A stretch of 64,000 bases of DNA from Phenylobacterium sp. (GTDB lineage Bacteria; Pseudomonadota; Alphaproteobacteria; Caulobacterales; Caulobacteraceae): contig NZ_JAUSBZ010000045.1 in the NCBI RefSeq assembly GCF_030651755.1, positions 1-64,000 on the forward strand. The letters are read 5' to 3'. Made by a program: the position numbers and the translations under genes. Under the pieces are notes generated by a model. It did no database searches. It was not told where the DNA came from and saw only the letters and a program-made list of their open reading frames with translations. Shown in pieces: positions 1,824-52,433 of this stretch; position 1 is the first letter of the stretch, and every line of letters starts with the position of its first letter.

Positions 1824-2117
1824 GGGATCTCCTTCGCCGACGCGGGACGCGCCGGCGGGATTCTGAAGGTTCGATTGGAGGGGGGGGGCAGGGACGGGCC
1901 GGCGGCTTAAGGGCGCCGACGGCCCCATCGCATTCGATGCGGGGTCGGGATCAGCTTCGGCTCTGGCGAAGGCGCCACGGCGGCCTCCCGTTCAGGTCAA
2001 GGACAGGACGGGAGACTTGCGGCAGGCGCGGACGGGCGCAGGTCGCCGCGAGACGGGAGTCCGGGCGTGCGCACGATGCGACCCGCCGGGACCCCCCGCC
2101 CGAGGACGTTATCTGAC

Positions 2118-2304
2118 GCGGCAGGTCTCCTGGCTCGCGGGTCGAAGCGGCTGTCTGGCCTTCCCGACGGGGTCTCCGTCAGTGACACGATCGACAGCCG
2201 CTCGCCGCTTACAGTTGCGGGGACAGCTCCGGAGTCGGGCGCATGGCTTGGCCCTCACCGGATTCCCTCTTAGCTCCGGGTCCGAAGACCCGCAGAACCG
2301 CGAC
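2118..2304 (-). ncRNA. Cobalamin (B12) riboswitch upstream of metE
   Basis: Minus strand carries GGGAATCCGGTGAGGGCC...AGCTGTCCCCGCAACTGTAAGCGG...GTCACTG...GGGAAGGCC...GACCCGCGAGCCAGGAGACCTGCC, the conserved cobalamin riboswitch core. Confidence 0.95.
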
Positions 2305-2310
2305 CCTGTC

Positions 2311-2339
2311 ATCTAGGGCGATCACCAGACGCCCGTCAA
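2311..2339 (-). promoter_or_regulatory. Predicted sigma-70-type promoter of the metE riboswitch transcript (TTGACG-N17-CTAGAT)
   Basis: Minus-strand TTGACG (2339-2334), 17-nt spacer, CTAGAT (2316-2311); predicted start falls at the 5' edge of the riboswitch. Confidence 0.65.
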
Positions 2340-2426: not shown

Positions 2427-6018
<3,592 letters not shown>

Positions 6019-6105
6019 CCCCCACAAGCCTGGACAGGCCGCCCCAACTCCTGAACTCTTCGGTTCCGAGGAAACAAAAGCCGGAAACCGGCAGGGAGTT
6101 GGGCG

Positions 6106-7533
6106 ATGGCCTTCGACGAATATGCCGAGCATGACGGGCTGGGACTGGCCGCTCTTGTGGCCAAGGGCGAGGTCAGCCCGACCGAGCTGGTCGAGGCCGC
6201 CATCGCGCGGGTCGAGCGGTACAACGGCGTCCTGAACGCCGTCGTCCACAAGGCTTATGACGAGGCCCGCGCCACCGCCGCCGGCGACCTGCCCGACGGC
6301 CCGTTCAAGGGCGTGCCCTTCCTGATCAAGGACCTGGGCGCCCAAGTGAAGGGCTGGCCCCGCACCTCGGGCAGCCGGTTCGCTAAGGTGGCCGCCGATG
6401 AGGCCGACAGCGAACTGGTGGCCCGCTACCGCGCCGCGGGCGTGGTCCTGCTCGGCAAGTCCAACACCCCGGAGTTTGGCATTCCCGGCGTCACCCACTC
6501 CGACCAGCTGGGGGCCTGCCGCAATCCCTGGAACCCCGACCATATCTCCGGCGGCTCGTCGGGCGGGGCGGCGTCAGCCACGGCGGCGGGCATGGTGCCC
6601 CTGGCCCACGCCAGCGACGGCCTGGGTTCGATCCGGATTCCGGCGGCCTGCTGCGGCCTGTTCGGCATGAAGATCACCCGCGACCGGACCCCCATCTGCG
6701 AAGTGGTCGACGGCGCCCTGGGCTTCTCGGTCCACCATGTGGTCAGCCGCACGGTGCGCGACTCCGCGGCCATGCTGGACGCCACCGGCTATCCCCAGGC
6801 CGGCGATCCCTTCCAGGCCCCGGCCAAGGCCGGCCCCTATCTGGAGGAGGTGAGCCGAAGCCCGGGACGCCTGCGCATCGCCTGGTCGGCGGAGACGCCC
6901 AGCGGACGGCCCATCCCCGACGACATGCTCGCCCACCTGCTGGCCACAGTCGAACTCCTGAAGGGCCTGGGCCACGAGGTGTTCGAGCAGGGCCTGGGGA
7001 TCGACTATCGTCAGCTCTACCGGGCCCAGAGCCTGGCCAGCGCCTCGAACTTCTCGGCCAATGTGGCCCGCTGGGTGGAGAAGCTCGGCCGCGAGCCCGG
7101 GGATGACGAACTCGGCCCCCTGGCGCGGCGCGGCTATGAGGCCGGCAAGCGGCTGAACGGCCAGCAGGCCTTCTGGGGCTTCCAGCAGCTGCGCCTGATG
7201 AACCGTCAGATCCTCTCGGCCTTCGAGGCCTTCGACGTCTATCTGACCCCGGTGATGAGCACGCCGGCGCCCAGGGTCGACTGGCTCGACCCCAATATGG
7301 CCGACACCCGGGAATTCGATAAACGCCAGGCGGCCACCTACGCCACCACCCCGCCGGCCAACTTCACCGGCCAGCCGTCCATGTCCGTACCCCTTTGGGA
7401 GTCAGAGGACGGTCTGCCCGTCGGCATGATGTTCACAGGCCGCTTCGCCGACGAGGCCGCCCTCTACCGGCTGGCGGGCCAGCTCGAGAAGGAACAGCCC
7501 TGGAAAGACCGTCGTCCGGCCCTGTGGAACTGA
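6106..7533 (+). CDS. Amidase signature family protein
   Basis: Gly/Ser-rich amidase signature ISGGSSGGAASATAAGMVPLAHASDGLGSIRIPAACCGLFGMK. Confidence 0.9.
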   Translation: MAFDEYAEHDGLGLAALVAKGEVSPTELVEAAIARVERYNGVLNAVVHKAYDEARATAAGDLPDGPFKGVPFLIKDLGAQVKGWPRTSGSRFAKVAADEADSELVARYRAAGVVLLGKSNTPEFGIPGVTHSDQLGACRNPWNPDHISGGSSGGAASATAAGMVPLAHASDGLGSIRIPAACCGLFGMKITRDRTPICEVVDGALGFSVHHVVSRTVRDSAAMLDATGYPQAGDPFQAPAKAGPYLEEVSRSPGRLRIAWSAETPSGRPIPDDMLAHLLATVELLKGLGHEVFEQGLGIDYRQLYRAQSLASASNFSANVARWVEKLGREPGDDELGPLARRGYEAGKRLNGQQAFWGFQQLRLMNRQILSAFEAFDVYLTPVMSTPAPRVDWLDPNMADTREFDKRQAATYATTPPANFTGQPSMSVPLWESEDGLPVGMMFTGRFADEAALYRLAGQLEKEQPWKDRRPALWN

Positions 7534-30231: not shown

Positions 30232-30475
30232 ACCGCCCTCGTCCTTCGAGGCCGCTTCGCAGCGCCTTAAGGATGAGGACGAATGAGAGGTCCCGCCCGC
30301 ACCCCCCCTCCTCATGCTGAGGTGCGAGCGCAGCGAACCTCGAAGCACGCACGGCGCCGCCACGCGCCCGCCGCAGGCGCCCCATGGCGAACCACAAAGC
30401 GCACGAAGCTCATAAAGAAGGACGCGGCGCCTTCGTGCCCTTTGTGTCCTTCGTGGTTTCTCCTTCCCCTTGCCC
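30232..30475. repeat. Composite palindromic repeat, copy A
   Basis: CCTCGTCCTTCGAGGCCGCT...AGGATGAGGACGAATGAGAGGTCCCGCCCGCACC...CCTCATGCTGAGGTGCGAGCG...AACCACAAAGC..CACGAAG...CCTTCGTGCCCTTTGTGTCCTTCGTGGTT; same order of units at 31203-31443. Confidence 0.85.
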
Positions 30476-30509
30476 CCCGCCACCAGACCCATGCATCCTG
30501 GCCCCCGTC

Positions 30510-31202: not shown

Positions 31203-31443
31203 CGCCGCCCTCGTCCTTCGAGGCCGCTCCGCGGCGCCTCAGGATGAGGACGAATGAGAGGTCCCGCCCGCACCCACCCCCTCATGCTGAGGTGCGAGCG
31301 CCAGCGAGCCTCGAAGCACGCACGACCCCACCGCCTCTCGCGCCGCAGGCGCCCCAGGTCGCACCACAAAGCTCACGAAGCCCACAAAGACGAACACGGC
31401 CCCTTCGTGCCCTTTGTGTCCTTCGTGGTTGATCCCTTCCCCA
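31203..31443. repeat. Composite palindromic repeat, copy B
   Basis: Collinear with 30232-30475, same orientation, high identity by eye. Confidence 0.85.
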
Positions 31444-31544
31444 CCCCCGTCAGGCTCGGCGGCGGGAGATGGTCCACGTCCGAACTCCGCCGGACGCCGC
31501 GCCTCTCCCATGCTCTGCTCGCCCCACCGCCCAAGGAGCCCCCC

Positions 31545-31982
31545 ATGACCGATCACGCCGCCACCTTCCACGCCCTGCACACCGGCCCCGACCTGCTCAT
31601 CCTGCCCAATGCCTGGGGCGCCGCCAGCGCGGCCCTGATGGCGAGCGCGGGCGCCAAGGCCGTGGCCACCTCCTCGGCCGCCGTGGCCTGGGCGCAAGGC
31701 TTTCCCGATGGAGACGCCCTGCCGACCGACCGGCTGATTGCGGTGATCGCCGATGTGGTGCGGGTGACGCCGGTCCCGGTCACCGCCGACATCGAGGGCG
31801 GCTACACCGACGACCTTGCCGAGCTTGCCGAGACCATCCGCCGGGTGGCGGGCGCCGGCGCCGTGGGGATCAATCTGGAGGATGGCGCCCGGGACCCCGA
31901 CCTCCAATCTCCTCATGCTTCGGCGCGAGCCGATGCATGCGCTCCCTCAAAAAGCGTTCGCTTGGGGACATCAAGTGCGTGA
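31545..31982 (+). pseudogene. Truncated isocitrate lyase/PEP mutase family protein
   Basis: MTDHAATFHALHTGPDLLILPNAWGAASAALMASAGAKAVATSSAAVAWAQGFPDGD...VPVTADIEGGYTDD...GAVGINLEDGARDPD, then homology stops at the low-GC junction; about half the family length. Confidence 0.75.
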
Positions 31983-32054
31983 AGAACCGAGCAGGCTAGG
32001 ATCGATTGCGGAACGAGGTTAGACCGTGTCGCGGCTAATTGGTTGGGGGGTACG

Positions 32055-33179
32055 ATGCGCTATGCGGTGAAGTTGATGACGAGCAGCGATCTGACGTTGT
32101 TCGCTGGATATTTCCGCCTGCACTCGAGCAGTAAGCAGAAGGGCACGAACCTGGACAGCGATGTGATGGCTAGCCGACTCTTTCCTGCGCTTCCGGCTTC
32201 TATAACTGGTACATTTGAACAGCCAGTGGTGGTGGATGTCTATGGCCCAGATGGCGCACCTATACACAGGGTGCGGCGTAAGATCATCAAGTCAGAGGGG
32301 AGCCGGAACTGGCGCCTGAACGGCAAGCTCATCTATGGGCCAGACGCTGACCCTAGCCGGTTCGACGGTCTCCAGGCTGAGGACATTGCTGTGTTTGGCT
32401 TTGATGGTGAACCTCTCCCAACGTCGATCAGCATGGTTCTCCTTTCGGCGACCTCGCCTTCCGACAAGCCAATCGCTGACTATCTGAGGTCCACGTTCCA
32501 GCTGGCCCCTCGGGTGCGCTCTATGACCGACATGAGCACTACCGACTTAGCAGCGGTACCGGTGCCTGCCGGGCATCCATTGAATCTTCTCCTGCCCGAC
32601 CCAGCCCGCACTGCCGATTTGATTGCAGCGGCGGAGGATGACGAGGTCGCGAGGCGCAGGCTGGACACCCGGGCACGGTCAGGCACAGCCCGCCCAGTCA
32701 GCGCCGCTGAACTTGCAGCAGCAAAGGCGCGCGCCCACGAGGTAGGCAGAGCGGGCGAGGCACTATTCTGTGCGCATCTTGAGCGCGAACTTACTGCCAA
32801 GAATATCTCAGGTTTTATCTGGACTGCAGATCAGAACGCCACCAGCCCCTATGACTTTGAGGTAACTGAACTGAGTGGCGGAACGACGCTGATAGACGTC
32901 AAAAGCACCACATCAAGCTTTGACGGCAGCGTCCATATATCTGGAGCTGAACTATACACCGCAGCGAGCAGTTCTGAGTATAGGATCGCACGCGTTTTTG
33001 ATCTTGAGGCTGCTGGTGGGCCTAAGGTCAGAGTTTCAGAGCCCATCGAGCTGATCGCCTTAGCCGTACGCGATCAACTTGCCACGCTGCCGACCGGCGT
33101 TCGGGCCTCAAAATTTGAGATGCATACGGACCTTTTTACCTGGAGCGAACCTACGCCGCTTCCGTCGGACGACGACTAG
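32055..33179 (+). CDS. Predicted restriction endonuclease with C-terminal PD-(D/E)xK (DUF3883-like) domain
   Basis: GRAGEALFCAHLERELTAKN...SPYDFEVTELSGGTTLIDVKSTTSSFDGSVHISGAELYTAASSSEYRIARVFDLE; ATG at 32055 after GGGGGG; next to C5 methyltransferase and vsr. Confidence 0.75.
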   Translation: MRYAVKLMTSSDLTLFAGYFRLHSSSKQKGTNLDSDVMASRLFPALPASITGTFEQPVVVDVYGPDGAPIHRVRRKIIKSEGSRNWRLNGKLIYGPDADPSRFDGLQAEDIAVFGFDGEPLPTSISMVLLSATSPSDKPIADYLRSTFQLAPRVRSMTDMSTTDLAAVPVPAGHPLNLLLPDPARTADLIAAAEDDEVARRRLDTRARSGTARPVSAAELAAAKARAHEVGRAGEALFCAHLERELTAKNISGFIWTADQNATSPYDFEVTELSGGTTLIDVKSTTSSFDGSVHISGAELYTAASSSEYRIARVFDLEAAGGPKVRVSEPIELIALAVRDQLATLPTGVRASKFEMHTDLFTWSEPTPLPSDDD

Positions 33180-34648
33180 GCTGCCACTAAGTCACGCGCA
33201 GAGACAGCTTCTGACAACATCGCCTTTATGTGCTTCGCGAGGGCGAACGCCAGAAGGGGTGGAACCGCGTTACCAATTTGCCTGAACGCCGGATTCATGG
33301 TTCCCCTGAACACGAAACCATCGGGAAAACTCTGAAGGCGAGCCGCCTCGCGGACGCTGATCGTGCGGGCCTGATCGCTGTCGTAGTGAATGTGCGAATA
33401 TGTATCCTTGCCAATGTGCGCCAGCAATGTGCGGCTAGGCTGATCGCGCCGCAGCTTCCACCAACGATTGGGGAAGTTTGTCACCGGATACGGCGGAACC
33501 ATCTTCCTAAACAATGCGTCGCGGCTCTCTTGTGAAACAGGATGTCCCGCCGCTTTAAGGTCAGCCACGGCCTCTTCGAATAAGCGGACAGCGGTTGCAT
33601 GAGCTGCGGGGTACTCTGCGCCATTCGGCATTTCGCGGAAGATAAACGTGTCGCGAGGCAGGTAGCGGATAACGTGATCGCTGATGCCTTCAGTGCTCTC
33701 GAAATTCGACCAGTTGCGCAAGTCGGCCGCAAATGACGACGGGAGCCGGGTAGAATCGTACCGTGTCACAACGTCAAATCGGCGCGCGCCTCGTTTCAGC
33801 TTGCCCTCAAGGTGAAGAGTGATTGGGGGCAGATCGCCGATCGCTTCCTCGGCAGTCACCGCATAGGGCAGAGAGGGGGGCCCTACGGGTTCCTCAATAA
33901 ACGTACCGGCGCACAACATGTCGATGTTCTTAAAGGCGACAGCGCGAGTGCCGCTATATCCAGGCGGCAGATCAACGTGTCTGGTCGGCGCCGGAAACGA
34001 AGGCGTTATCCCGAGGCTTTCATGGAACGCCAGAAGTATCACGCGGTCGCGCATTTGGGGGACGCCAAATCGGGAGGCGTTTAGGAGCGTGTACCGGGCA
34101 ATGTAACCCATGTCTGAGAGCGCTTCAGCGATCTCAGCCACTACATTGTGGCCGCCATAGTTCATGATATCCGGCACGTTCTCCATGAGAAGAGCCAGCG
34201 GTTTTGTCTCATTCACATAGTGGAGATAGCGGAGATATAGGTTGCCTCGAGCATCAACTTTGAAAGCTTCAGGATGCTGGGCAACGTCGCGTAGCTTGGC
34301 TCTGCCAACGCGAGCATAAGCTTGGCACGGCGGCCCTCCCACCAAGACGTCGAAAGCGTCTGGGGCAGCCTCAAGGCCCAGCTCTGCCACCAGTTGCTCG
34401 GGCTCAATTGCGGTTATGTCACGCGCCGATGCATGGCGCTCAAACTCCGCAGGCGCAGCATGCCGATGAAAGTTGGTGGCGTGTGAGAGAGCGGCGAGCG
34501 GATCGAATTCAATCGCGGCCTCGATCTGGAAGCCAGCTCGCTGGAACCCAAGCGATATGCCTCCGCATCCAGCGAACAGGTCCAAAACCCGCACCGGATT
34601 ACCGTCTGAAAGTCGCTCCAGCTTTCTGGCGATGGAAGGGTCTGTCAT
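33176..34648 (-). CDS. DNA (cytosine-5-)-methyltransferase
   Basis: VRVLDLFAGCGGISLGFQRAGF, VGGPPCQAYARVGR, MENVPD, QIGNAVPPLLAFALA. Confidence 0.96.
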   Translation of the reverse strand: MTDPSIARKLERLSDGNPVRVLDLFAGCGGISLGFQRAGFQIEAAIEFDPLAALSHATNFHRHAAPAEFERHASARDITAIEPEQLVAELGLEAAPDAFDVLVGGPPCQAYARVGRAKLRDVAQHPEAFKVDARGNLYLRYLHYVNETKPLALLMENVPDIMNYGGHNVVAEIAEALSDMGYIARYTLLNASRFGVPQMRDRVILLAFHESLGITPSFPAPTRHVDLPPGYSGTRAVAFKNIDMLCAGTFIEEPVGPPSLPYAVTAEEAIGDLPPITLHLEGKLKRGARRFDVVTRYDSTRLPSSFAADLRNWSNFESTEGISDHVIRYLPRDTFIFREMPNGAEYPAAHATAVRLFEEAVADLKAAGHPVSQESRDALFRKMVPPYPVTNFPNRWWKLRRDQPSRTLLAHIGKDTYSHIHYDSDQARTISVREAARLQSFPDGFVFRGTMNPAFRQIGNAVPPLLAFALAKHIKAMLSEAVSARDLVAA

Positions 34649-35076
34649 CTGTCGGCTGGCCTGATCCGCGGCGGCCCAAGGAAATCGACCAGCCGCCTTC
34701 GCAACACTTCACTATCGACCGCTTCGCATTCCCAGACAACAAGCGCTTCCCAGCCTAGAGCATTGACCGCCAAGAGCACCCGCCCGTCGCGCTCGCGGTT
34801 TTTTCGGAACTTTTCTGACCAGAATGCAGCCCGGCTTTTAGGCCGATAGGCTTTGGCGCACCCCTCGTGGCTGTGCCAAAAACAACCATGAACGAAGATG
34901 ACCTTACGACGCTTGGGGAAGACAAGGTCGGGGGAGCCCGGCAGGCCGCGATCATGCAAACGGTACCTGTAGCCAGCCCGGAACGCGGCGGAGCGAACGA
35001 TTATCTCTGGCTTCGTATTGCGCGACCTAATGGCGCGCATGTTGGCCGACCGGCGCTCAGGCGATAGGCGATCCAT
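34645..35076 (-). CDS. vsr: Very short patch repair endonuclease
   Basis: MDRLSPERRSANMRAIRSRNTKPEIIVRSAAFRAGYRYRLHDRGLPGSPDLVFPKRRKVIFVHGCFWHSHEGCAKAYRPKSRAAFW; ATGA overlap with methyltransferase. Confidence 0.96.
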   Translation of the reverse strand: MDRLSPERRSANMRAIRSRNTKPEIIVRSAAFRAGYRYRLHDRGLPGSPDLVFPKRRKVIFVHGCFWHSHEGCAKAYRPKSRAAFWSEKFRKNRERDGRVLLAVNALGWEALVVWECEAVDSEVLRRRLVDFLGPPRIRPADR

Positions 35077-35318
35077 GAACTCCCCTAACTGGTTGAAGCA
35101 GGCGAACCAACCGTACCACCAGCTGCAATCAAGCCTCCTTGACGCTGTAGCGTAAGGATGACTGCAACGGCTCAGCCTGTAAGCAAGCCAACATATTGCG
35201 GATAGGTGTGATGGGCCTGCCAATGCGTCCCTTTCCGCCCGAGGATCTCGATTTTGAAAGCGTCAACACCCCACCTCCGCACGTGACCACGGCCCCGCCC
35301 GCGCCTATCTTCCCGCGC

Positions 35319-38156
35319 ATGACCGACACGCTTGAGACCGCCCCCCTGCCGGACCTGCCGCGGACGCCCACTCAGGATGGGCCGCCGGTGCGGCTCTATC
35401 TGGTGGATGGGTCGGGCTATATCTTCCGCGCCTATCACGCCCTGCCGCCGCTGACCCGCAAGAGCGACGGCCTGCCGATCGGGGCGGTGTCGGGCTTCTG
35501 CAACATGCTGTGGAAGCTGCTGGTGGAGATGCGGGCCCAGGCCGATGGCCCGACCCACCTGGCGGTGATCTTCGACCATTCGGAGAAGACGTTCCGCAAC
35601 ACCCTCTATGACCAGTACAAGGCCCACCGGCCGCCGCCGCCGGAGGACCTGATCCCGCAGTTTCCCCTGGTGCGGGAGGCGACGCGGGCCTTTGGCGTGC
35701 CGAGCCTGGAGCTGCCCGGCTATGAGGCCGACGACCTGATCGCGGCCTATGCCTGCAAGGTGCGCGACGCCGGCGGCGAGGTGACCATCATCTCGTCGGA
35801 CAAGGACCTGATGCAGCTGGTCGGCGACCGGGTCTCCATGCTCGACACCATGAAGAACCTGAAGATCGGCCGCGAGCAGGTGATCGAGAAGTTCGGGGTG
35901 CCGCCGGAAAAGGTGGTGGATGTCCAGGCGCTGTGCGGCGATTCCGTCGACAATGTGCCGGGCGCGCCGGGCATCGGCATCAAGACCGCCGCCCAGCTGA
36001 TCAACGAATATGGCGACCTCGATACGCTGTTGGCGAGGGCGGGCGAGATCAAGCAGCCCAAGCGGCGCGAGACCCTGATCAATTTCGCCGACCAGATCCG
36101 CCTGTCGCGCCAGCTGGTGCAGCTGGACTGCGACACCCCCCTGCCCGCCCCCATCGACGACCTGGCGGTGGCCGAGCCGGAGCCCGCCGTGCTGGCGGCT
36201 TTCTTGGAGGAGATGCAGTTCCGCAGTCTGGCCAGGCGGGTGAGCGCGGGCGACGCCGCCCCTAGCCAGCCGGCGCCCGAGCCCCGGGCTGCGCCGGAAG
36301 CGCCACCCATCGACGTCAACGGCTATGAATGCGTGCGCGATGTGGCCACGCTGGAGGCCTGGATCGAGAAGGCCCGGGCCATCGGCGTCGTCGCCTTCGA
36401 CACCGAGACCGATGCGCTGTCCTCGGCCAGCGCCGGCCTGTGCGGCGTGTCCCTGGCCGTCGCGCCCGGTCAGGCCTGCTACATTCCCCTGGCCCATGAG
36501 GAGCTGGACGGCCTGGCGCTGGATGCGCCGTCCGACCTGACCCAGATCCCACTGCCCATCGCCATCGAGCTGCTGAAGCCGATGCTGGAGGACCCGGCGG
36601 TCCTGAAGATCGCCCAGAACGCCAAGTACGACCTGGCCGTCCTGTCGCGCTACGGCGTGCGCGTGGCGCCGGTCGAGGACACCATGCTGATCTCCTATGT
36701 GCTGGAGGCGGGCCTGCATGGGCACGGCATGGACGAGCTGTCGCGCCTGTGGCTGGGCCATGAGCCGATCCCCTTCAAGCAGGTGGCCGGGACCGGCAAG
36801 GGGCAGAAGAGCTTCAAGAAGGTCGCCCTGAAGGAGGCCACCTGTTACGCCGCCGAAGACGCCGACGTGACCCTGCGGCTCTATCAGGTGTTGAAGCCCA
36901 GGCTCGCACCCGCAGGCCTGTCCACCGTCTATGAGACCCTGGAGCGTCCGCTGGCCGCCGTGCTGGCCGACATGGAGGTGGCCGGCATCGCGGTGGACCC
37001 CGAGCACCTGCGCAAGCTGTCCAACGACTTCGCCCTGCGCATGGCCGAGTTCGAGGCCAAGGCCCATGAACTGGCCGGCCGGCCGTTCAACCTGGGCTCG
37101 CCCAAGCAGGTCGGCGAAATCCTGTACCAGGAGATGGGGCTGGCGCCGAAGCGGACCACGGCGTCCGGCGCCTCGTCCACCGACGCCTCGGTGCTGGAGG
37201 AGCTGGCCCTCCAGGGCCACGAACTGCCCCGGGTTCTGCTGGACTGGCGCCAGCTCTCGAAGTTGAAGGGCACCTATACCGACGCGCTTGTGGCGGCCAT
37301 CGCGCCGGACACCAGGCGCGTCCACACCTCGTTCGCGCTCGCGGCCACCACGACCGGGCGGTTGTCGTCGTCTGACCCCAACCTGCAGAACATCCCGATC
37401 CGCACGGAGGAGGGCCGCAAGATCCGCAAGGCCTTCGTGGCCGAGCCGGGCCATCTGCTGATCAGCGCCGATTACAGCCAGATCGAGCTGCGCATTTTGG
37501 CCCATATGGGCGACATTCCGCAGCTTAAACGGGCCTTTTTGGACGGTTTGGACATCCACGCCATGACGGCTTCGGAGATGTTCGGCGTACCCATTGAAGG
37601 CATGCCGGCCGAGACGCGCCGCCGCGCCAAGGCGATCAATTTCGGCATCGTCTATGGCATCTCGGCCTTTGGCCTGGCCAACCAGCTGTCGATCCCGCAG
37701 GACGAGGCGGGGGCCTATATCCGCACCTATTTCGACCGTTTCCCCGGCATTCGCGACTATATGGACGCCGAAAAGGCCAAGGTGCGGAGCCAAGGCTTCG
37801 TCACCACGCTCTTTGGCCGCAAGGTCAACATCCCCGAGGTCGGCGCCAAGGCCGCCGGCATGCGGGCCTTCGCCGACCGCGCCGCCATCAACGCCCCGAT
37901 CCAGGGCACCGCCGCCGACGTGATCCGCCGGGCCATGATCCGCATGCCGGGCGCGCTGGCGGCCGCGGGGCTTTCCACCCGCATGCTGCTGCAGGTGCAC
38001 GACGAACTGGTGTTCGAGGCGCCTGAGGCCGAGGCCGAGGCGGCGATCGCCGTGATCAAGCGGGTGATGGAGACCGCGTCCGAACCGGCCGTGGCCTTCT
38101 CCGTCCCCCTGGTGGTGGAGGCCCGCGCCGCGGCCAACTGGGACGACGCCCACTAG
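35319..38156 (+). CDS. polA: DNA polymerase I
   Basis: LYLVDGSGYIFRAYHALPPLTRKSDGLPIGAVSGFCNMLWKLL...SADYSQIELRILAHMG...QVHDELVFE. Confidence 0.98.
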   Translation: MTDTLETAPLPDLPRTPTQDGPPVRLYLVDGSGYIFRAYHALPPLTRKSDGLPIGAVSGFCNMLWKLLVEMRAQADGPTHLAVIFDHSEKTFRNTLYDQYKAHRPPPPEDLIPQFPLVREATRAFGVPSLELPGYEADDLIAAYACKVRDAGGEVTIISSDKDLMQLVGDRVSMLDTMKNLKIGREQVIEKFGVPPEKVVDVQALCGDSVDNVPGAPGIGIKTAAQLINEYGDLDTLLARAGEIKQPKRRETLINFADQIRLSRQLVQLDCDTPLPAPIDDLAVAEPEPAVLAAFLEEMQFRSLARRVSAGDAAPSQPAPEPRAAPEAPPIDVNGYECVRDVATLEAWIEKARAIGVVAFDTETDALSSASAGLCGVSLAVAPGQACYIPLAHEELDGLALDAPSDLTQIPLPIAIELLKPMLEDPAVLKIAQNAKYDLAVLSRYGVRVAPVEDTMLISYVLEAGLHGHGMDELSRLWLGHEPIPFKQVAGTGKGQKSFKKVALKEATCYAAEDADVTLRLYQVLKPRLAPAGLSTVYETLERPLAAVLADMEVAGIAVDPEHLRKLSNDFALRMAEFEAKAHELAGRPFNLGSPKQVGEILYQEMGLAPKRTTASGASSTDASVLEELALQGHELPRVLLDWRQLSKLKGTYTDALVAAIAPDTRRVHTSFALAATTTGRLSSSDPNLQNIPIRTEEGRKIRKAFVAEPGHLLISADYSQIELRILAHMGDIPQLKRAFLDGLDIHAMTASEMFGVPIEGMPAETRRRAKAINFGIVYGISAFGLANQLSIPQDEAGAYIRTYFDRFPGIRDYMDAEKAKVRSQGFVTTLFGRKVNIPEVGAKAAGMRAFADRAAINAPIQGTAADVIRRAMIRMPGALAAAGLSTRMLLQVHDELVFEAPEAEAEAAIAVIKRVMETASEPAVAFSVPLVVEARAAANWDDAH

Positions 38157-45806: not shown

Positions 45807-45882
45807 TGGTGGAGCCGAGCGGAATCGAACCGCTGACCTCCTCATTGCGAACGAGGCGCTCTACCAACTGAGCTACGGCCCC
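45807..45882 (-). tRNA. tRNA-Ala (anticodon CGC)
   Basis: GGGGCCGTAGCTCAGTTGGTAGAGCGCCTCGTTCGCAATGAGGAGGTCAGCGGTTCGATTCCGCTCGGCTCCACCA folds as a cloverleaf with encoded CCA. Confidence 0.96.
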
Positions 45883-52283: not shown

Positions 52284-52433
52284 TGGGTCTGCAGTTCACC
52301 CAGGCGTCACCGCCCCATCCGGGGAGCTAAACCTGCCAAGGCGAAGACGCCCCGCTTGTCCTGACGAGCGCCGGGTCGGAAGTCGGTGACCTCGACGCCC
52401 CTTCAAGGGGTTGGCGCCTCATGAGGATGAGTG
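52284..52433 (+). ncRNA. Candidate structured 5' leader (putative cis-regulatory RNA) of the DUF2087 gene
   Basis: Promoter-like TTGCCA-N16-TAGAAG at 52251-52278; mutually exclusive pairings GGCGTC/GACGCC and GTCACCG/CGGTGAC; several small hairpins; Shine-Dalgarno inside CCTCATGAGG palindrome. Confidence 0.35.

What the first reader, a model, noticed from the sequence alone, without database searches (positions are those of the whole stretch)
32055..35076. Compact R-M-repair island: PD-(D/E)xK nuclease, C5 methyltransferase and Vsr between a broken gene and polA
Seen: three genes filling ~3 kb of visibly lower GC. A C5-MTase (VGGPPCQAYARVGR, MENVPD, QIGNAVPP) has a 4-nt ATGA overlap with Vsr. 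A convergent predicted nuclease ends on the same CTAG tetranucleotide as the MTase. Knowledge: Vsr repairs T:G mismatches from 5mC deamination at its partner methylase site. Inference: a horizontally acquired type II-like defence module with built-in mutation repair and an atypical nuclease partner. No integrase or transposase is visible in the window.
Basis: partly seen in the sequence, partly recalled or inferred. Interest (0 to 1): 0.7.

Follow-up and report, generated by a model that had tools for sequence, protein, structure and literature searches.

The report
Restriction-modification island with built-in mismatch repair
A 3.4-kb piece of foreign DNA in a Phenylobacterium-like genome carries a DNA-cutting enzyme, the enzyme that marks the host's own DNA, and a repair enzyme for the mutations the mark causes; the trio recurs across many bacterial phyla, so it is very probably a real defence unit of a known general type, with an unusual, little-studied cutter.

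Summary
An island (window 31907-35268, GC about 0.58 against about 0.69) holds a nuclease, a C5 methyltransferase and Vsr, with the stated CTAG and ATGA overlaps. Its edges match sharp breaks in alignment to same-genus genomes, which carry other cargo at the same mutase/polA junction.

The nuclease has two domains: an N-terminal B3-like DNA-recognition fold (AlphaFold pLDDT 94; Foldseek: LlaJI.R1, BfiI, plant B3) and a C-terminal NOV_C/DUF3883 PD-(D/E)xK nuclease (Hjc, PvuII, SwaI; E-D-(D/E)xK invariant in 42/42 relatives). In 50 relatives from many phyla the methyltransferase is adjacent in 48 (the other two hit contig ends) and Vsr present in 40, in at least seven gene orders. This is strong evidence for one functional unit: a Type II restriction-modification system with Vsr.

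The recognition site was not found and nothing is experimentally shown. DUF3883 was already listed as a presumed Type II REase. New variant of a known kind.

The parts
31907..35268 (.). Island: foreign segment between truncated mutase gene and polA
   Evidence: Homology to G440 and G565 stops at 31906 (31897 and 31886 in G682 and G521) and resumes at 35269 in all four; low GC
32055..33179 (+). Predicted restriction endonuclease: B3-like domain plus NOV_C/DUF3883 PD-(D/E)xK nuclease, 374 aa
   Evidence: PF13020 E=1e-7; AF2 pLDDT 93.7; Foldseek; invariant catalytic residues in 42/42
32055..32534 (+). B3-like DNA-recognition domain (about residues 1-160)
   Evidence: Foldseek: LlaJI.R1 N-terminal domain 6c5d prob 1.00, BfiI 3zi5 prob 1.00, ARF5/VAL1/FUS3 B3; same domain found alone or in other fusions
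32697..33176 (+). PD-(D/E)xK nuclease domain (residues 215-374; E235, D267, D281-x-K283)
   Evidence: AF2 pLDDT 94.5; Foldseek: Hjc, PvuII, SwaI, DpnI, AvaII
33176..34648 (-). C5 cytosine DNA methyltransferase, 490 aa, motifs I, IV, VI, VIII, IX, X intact
   Evidence: PF00145 E=1e-56; TIGR00675; 26-sequence alignment
34645..35076 (-). Vsr mismatch endonuclease, 143 aa
   Evidence: PF03852, TIGR00632; alignment to E. coli Vsr 1cw0 E=7e-28
31545..31982 (+). PEP-mutase/isocitrate-lyase-like gene truncated by the island (native to 31906, then non-homologous to a stop)
   Evidence: Intact 305-aa ortholog in G440 (L085)
35319..38156 (+). polA, right-hand neighbour, not part of the island
   Evidence: 92-95% identity to relatives from 35269 onward

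Best explanation
This is a horizontally acquired Type II restriction-modification system with a built-in repair gene. Proposed mechanism: the MTase puts 5-methylcytosine on one specific site throughout the host genome. The nuclease binds the same site, unmethylated, in incoming DNA through its N-terminal B3-like domain and cuts with its C-terminal PD-(D/E)xK (NOV_C) domain. Vsr nicks T:G mismatches left when 5mC deaminates, so short-patch repair restores the site and the host is spared mutations at methylated positions. Shown here: the genes, intact catalytic motifs, the two-domain predicted fold, exact island edges, and tight conservation of the trio. Inferred: that nuclease and MTase read the same site, that restriction occurs, and that Vsr acts on this MTase's site. 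Not determined: the site.
For: Nuclease relatives: 48/50 non-redundant loci have the C5 MTase adjacent (the 2 exceptions end 67 and 116 nt past the gene), 40/50 have Vsr, in at least seven different gene orders and orientations, across Proteobacteria, Cyanobacteria, Deinococcota, Bacteroidota, Firmicutes, Planctomycetes, Chloroflexota and Myxococcota. Distances correlate: nuclease-MTase Mantel r=0.70, MTase-Vsr 0.63, nuclease-Vsr 0.43 (expected from any co-inheritance, so supportive only). Catalytic E235, D267, D/E281 and K283 invariant in 42/42. Fold evidence for B3 and PD-(D/E)xK domains. MTase and Vsr motifs intact. DUF3883 was named presumptively a Type II REase group (PMC10609329) and a novel REase domain (PMC3710099). 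The insertion site carries defence-candidate PDC-M11A/B in G440 and a NACHT protein in G521.
Against: No activity data. The recognition site could not be inferred. Vsr is missing in at least five relatives with enough flank (L041, L047, L055, L065, L067) and is eroded in the closest one (L026), so it is an accessory, not essential. NOV_C occurs in other contexts (C-terminal-only hits), so the domain alone does not imply restriction.
Confidence: 0.85

Rival explanations
1. The nuclease is modification-dependent (Type IIM or IV-like), attacking DNA modified differently from the host, and the adjacent MTase-Vsr pair is a separate epigenetic unit that happens to travel with it.
For: The MTase clade also occurs next to an AspBHI-type REase (L096), a family known to me as 5mC-dependent, and next to Mza genes, so MTase-Vsr is not tied to one nuclease.
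Against: Adjacency of this nuclease to this MTase clade is 48/48 where testable, in many gene orders. Foldseek places its reader with site-specific B3 domains such as LlaJI.R1 and BfiI rather than 5mC readers.
Confidence: 0.07
2. The nuclease is not the full restriction activity: the locus is a reduced form of a five-gene system (MTase, McrB-like GTPase, DUF2357 McrC-like nuclease, NOV_C protein, Vsr) and has lost restriction, leaving methylation and repair.
For: Five-gene forms exist in L015, L017, L018, L037 and L056, including a same-genus genome (G517).
Against: The form without McrB/DUF2357 is the common one (45 of 50 loci) and spans phyla; the nuclease active site is invariant in both forms, which would not be kept if useless.
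Confidence: 0.05
3. The trio is a decaying or selfish cargo with no present function in this genome.
For: The island looks patchy: among 299 sampled family genomes only two others had a full-length nuclease relative, both in the five-gene form, and same-genus genomes have other cargo at this site.
Against: All three reading frames are open with intact motifs.
Confidence: 0.03

Closest known systems
B3-domain Type II restriction enzymes (EcoRII, BfiI, NgoAVII/CglI)
   Same: A B3-like DNA-recognition domain joined to a nuclease domain and paired with an MTase; EcoRII also combines an N-terminal B3-type effector domain with a PD-(D/E)xK nuclease (established knowledge; BfiI B3 in PMC4081073)
   Different: Catalytic domain is NOV_C/DUF3883; no sequence match to any PDB restriction enzyme by phmmer or profile; specificity and two-site behaviour unknown
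LlaJI / BsuMI-type GTP-dependent R-M systems
   Same: LlaJI.R1 has a B3 recognition domain, the best fold match (PMC7680126); some related loci of our family carry McrB-like and DUF2357 genes
   Different: The window has no McrB-like or DUF2357 gene; its nuclease carries its own B3 and PD-(D/E)xK domains. PF13020 did not match the B. subtilis control genome (B. subtilis is among the controls)
Vsr-linked C5 methyltransferases (Dcm-Vsr of E. coli, Neisseria Vsr, Caulobacter ScmA-VsrA)
   Same: Vsr paired with a C5 MTase; same repair logic (PMC12907096, PMC6116569)
   Different: Here Vsr travels with a nuclease as an R-M trio; Caulobacter VsrA is unlinked to its MTase and of DUF559 type
DUF3883/NOV_C proteins of PADLOC (TmtA, PDC-S36)
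   Same: Same C-terminal NOV_C domain (TmtA E=1e-10, PDC-S36 E=2e-8)
   Different: Matches cover only the C-terminal domain; the full-length B3-NOV_C form matched no library model over its length
Mza defence system
   Same: The same MTase-Vsr clade sits beside MzaB/C/D-like genes in Rhizobium, Sinorhizobium and Rhodovastum plasmids
   Different: No Mza genes at the window locus

Membership tests
Type II restriction-modification system | Endonuclease gene with a cognate MTase gene adjacent, conserved as a pair | tested here: met
   48/50 loci, other 2 at contig ends; at least seven gene orders
Type II restriction-modification system | Recognisable nuclease active site | tested here: met
   PF13020 over cut-off; E235/D267/D(E)281/K283 in 42/42; fold matches Hjc, PvuII, SwaI
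Type II restriction-modification system | Active C5 MTase motifs (FxGxGG, PCQ, ENV, QxRxR, GN) | tested here: met
Type II restriction-modification system | Endonuclease and MTase act on the same site; methylation blocks cutting | not testable with these tools
   Needs enzymes; motif-depletion attempts to find the site were inconclusive
EcoRII family | Sequence homology to EcoRII or its Pfam families | tested here: not met
   No hit in Pfam or PDB sequences; only the architecture is similar
B3-domain restriction enzymes | B3-like recognition fold | tested here: met
   Foldseek prob 0.97-1.00 to LlaJI.R1, BfiI, ARF5, VAL1, FUS3; computed model, not a solved structure
B3-domain restriction enzymes | Site-specific DNA binding by the B3 domain | not testable with these tools
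   Only conservation of candidate motifs QK..N and KNWRLNG
Vsr (VSP repair) | Vsr domain over curated cut-off with active-site and Zn-ligand residues kept | tested here: met
   PF03852, TIGR00632; aligned to E. coli Vsr: PD, HGCFWH, FW, RD and VWEC conserved; the Thr of IFTHGCF is Val here
Vsr (VSP repair) | Acts on T:G in the partner MTase site | not testable with these tools
   Inferred from linkage only
LlaJI/BsuMI-type system | McrB-like GTPase and DUF2357 nuclease genes | tested here: not met
   Island filled by three genes; present only in some relatives

The most novel reading that the evidence does not exclude
A conserved C5 MTase, usually with Vsr and often a B3 reader domain, forms a chassis of one fixed DNA specificity across many phyla onto which different effectors are swapped: NOV_C nuclease, stand-alone B3 with another nuclease, GHKL ATPase fusion, LlaJI-like McrB/DUF2357, Mza, or AspBHI-type REase.
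Probability: 0.4. Interest if true: 0.6.

Novelty: new variant of a known kind. Interest (0 to 1): 0.42.

Why it matters
It gives a concrete architecture and gene context for DUF3883/NOV_C, a domain only presumed to be a Type II restriction enzyme. It also makes testable whether self-marking, repair of the mark's mutations, and target reading form a fixed unit to which bacteria attach different weapons. Practically, the family spans phyla with a well-conserved MTase target-recognition region, so one methylome could predict the site for many members.

Tried and rejected
Inferring the recognition site from palindrome depletion: GGGCCC was lowest in carrier loci (observed/expected 0.50-0.52 against 0.81 in controls; per-locus p=0.002 before correction for 64 palindromes). 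Rejected as evidence because same-genus genomes without the island look equally depleted (L146-L148), flanks are often mobile DNA, and with degenerate patterns it fell inside an overdispersed spread. CTCGAG, considered from memory of BsuMI, showed no carrier-control difference. PDB sequence searches for the nuclease gave nothing. The idea that the island sits beside polA because VSP repair uses Pol I was rejected: relatives carry unrelated cargo at the same junction. A literature search for DUF3883/NOV_C found only passing mentions.

Full report
Observation. Library matches are strong: C5 MTase E=1e-56, Vsr E=1e-29, NOV_C E=1e-7, all above curated cut-offs. The nuclease start at ATG 32055 rather than TTG 32043 is supported by the start of its closest relative (L026).

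Island edges. Alignment to same-genus genomes gives sharp borders. Homology stops at 31906 in G440 (94% identity up to there) and G565, a little earlier in G682 and G521, and resumes at 35269 in all four. The left border lies inside a PEP-mutase-like gene that is intact (305 aa) in G440, so the broken gene is real. The same junction holds different cargo elsewhere: PADLOC candidate PDC-M11A/B in G440, a NACHT-like protein in G521 (Pfam E=2e-5, just under the curated cut-off) and an RlaP-family protein in G565. It is therefore a cargo hotspot with some defence-like genes, and adjacency to polA is probably incidental. No integrase lies in the island; how it arrived is unknown. A degenerate copy of a dispersed repeat overlaps the left border, but shuffles reach as many matches in 9 of 100 cases.

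The nuclease. A 42-sequence alignment gave an AlphaFold model of mean pLDDT 93.7. Foldseek against PDB matched the N-terminal part to B3 domains: LlaJI.R1, BfiI, and the plant factors ARF5, VAL1 and FUS3. The C-terminal part matched Hjc resolvase. Modelled alone (pLDDT 94.5) it matched Hjc first, then PvuII, SwaI and DpnI, with AvaII lower down. E-values for the C-terminal part are modest (best 0.005), but hits 1-19 are all PD-(D/E)xK nucleases, and E235, D267, D/E281 and K283 sit in the expected secondary-structure elements and are invariant in 42 of 42 relatives.

Neighbourhood. Relatives came from genome contigs (42 loci), viral contigs (7), plasmids (2) and family genomes. After removing duplicates, 48 of 50 have the C5 MTase adjacent and the two exceptions run off their contig; 40 of 50 have Vsr. 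Gene order and orientation vary (at least seven arrangements), which argues for selection on linkage rather than simple inheritance of one operon. Five of 50 have McrB-like (Walker motifs) and DUF2357 genes in addition. The closest relative (L026, a Phenylobacterium MAG, nuclease 73% and MTase 83% identical) sits at another chromosomal position and has no Vsr beyond a short stretch of DNA similarity at the gene's 3' end.

Partner swapping. Starting from the MTase instead, plasmid and viral relatives (about 47-67% identical) show other partners: Mza-like genes, McrB/DUF2357 without the nuclease (L125, L126), an AspBHI-type REase (L096), and B3-like domains alone (L105-L107, L124, L127) or fused to a GHKL ATPase (L108) or inside a 646-aa protein (L104). 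The motifs around Q28, N32 and KNWRLxG largely recur in these B3 domains. The MTase target-recognition region is nearly as conserved as the rest (median identity 0.54 against 0.57), which suggests, without proving, one shared specificity.

Function. Best reading: a Type II R-M system with a B3-PD-(D/E)xK endonuclease and a Vsr that limits mutation at the methylated site. The joint specificity, the cutting and the repair are inferences from families and linkage. The recognition site was sought by motif depletion and not found.

Known or new. DUF3883 was already called presumptively a Type II REase group (PMC10609329) and a novel REase domain (PMC3710099). B3-domain restriction enzymes are known. 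The B3-NOV_C architecture with a Vsr-MTase partner, and the effector swapping around it, I did not find described in the papers searched, but subscription papers and REBASE could not be searched.

Noticed in passing
L094 (G000 contig C4): Vsr 4148-4645 (-), cysteine synthase 4663-5652 (-), C5 MTase 5728-6900 (-): The same genome has a second C5 MTase and Vsr flanking a cysK-like gene, with no significant match to the island's MTase by tblastn; possibly comparable to the Caulobacter ScmA/VsrA pair, but linked here.
   Followed up: partly
L085, L086, L087, L088 (mutase/polA junction in G440, G565, G682, G521): The orthologous junction carries different cargo in each relative, including PDC-M11A/B and a NACHT-like protein: a cargo hotspot.
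   Followed up: partly
L096:4056-7458: C5 MTase and Vsr next to an AspBHI-type (RE_AspBHI_N plus Mrr_cat) enzyme; if that enzyme is 5mC-dependent as AspBHI is, the pairing looks paradoxical.
   Followed up: no
L106:5977-8054 (also L105, L107): Viral contig with the MTase and a stand-alone 168-aa B3-like protein near a serine recombinase, with no obvious nuclease: possibly self-protection or a regulator.
   Followed up: no
L026:5897-6000: Closest relative keeps nuclease and MTase but Vsr is missing apart from DNA similarity at its 3' end; Vsr can be lost.
   Followed up: partly
window 30233-30476, 31205-31448 and 31904-31932: Dispersed intergenic repeat in two copies upstream; a third degenerate fragment spans the left island border.
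   Followed up: partly
L061:5456-7534: A second, 692-aa NOV-matching protein lies next to the R-M trio.
   Followed up: no
window 2103-2317, 52285-52338, 45810-45882: Cobalamin riboswitch, COG3860 RNA and a tRNA.
   Followed up: no
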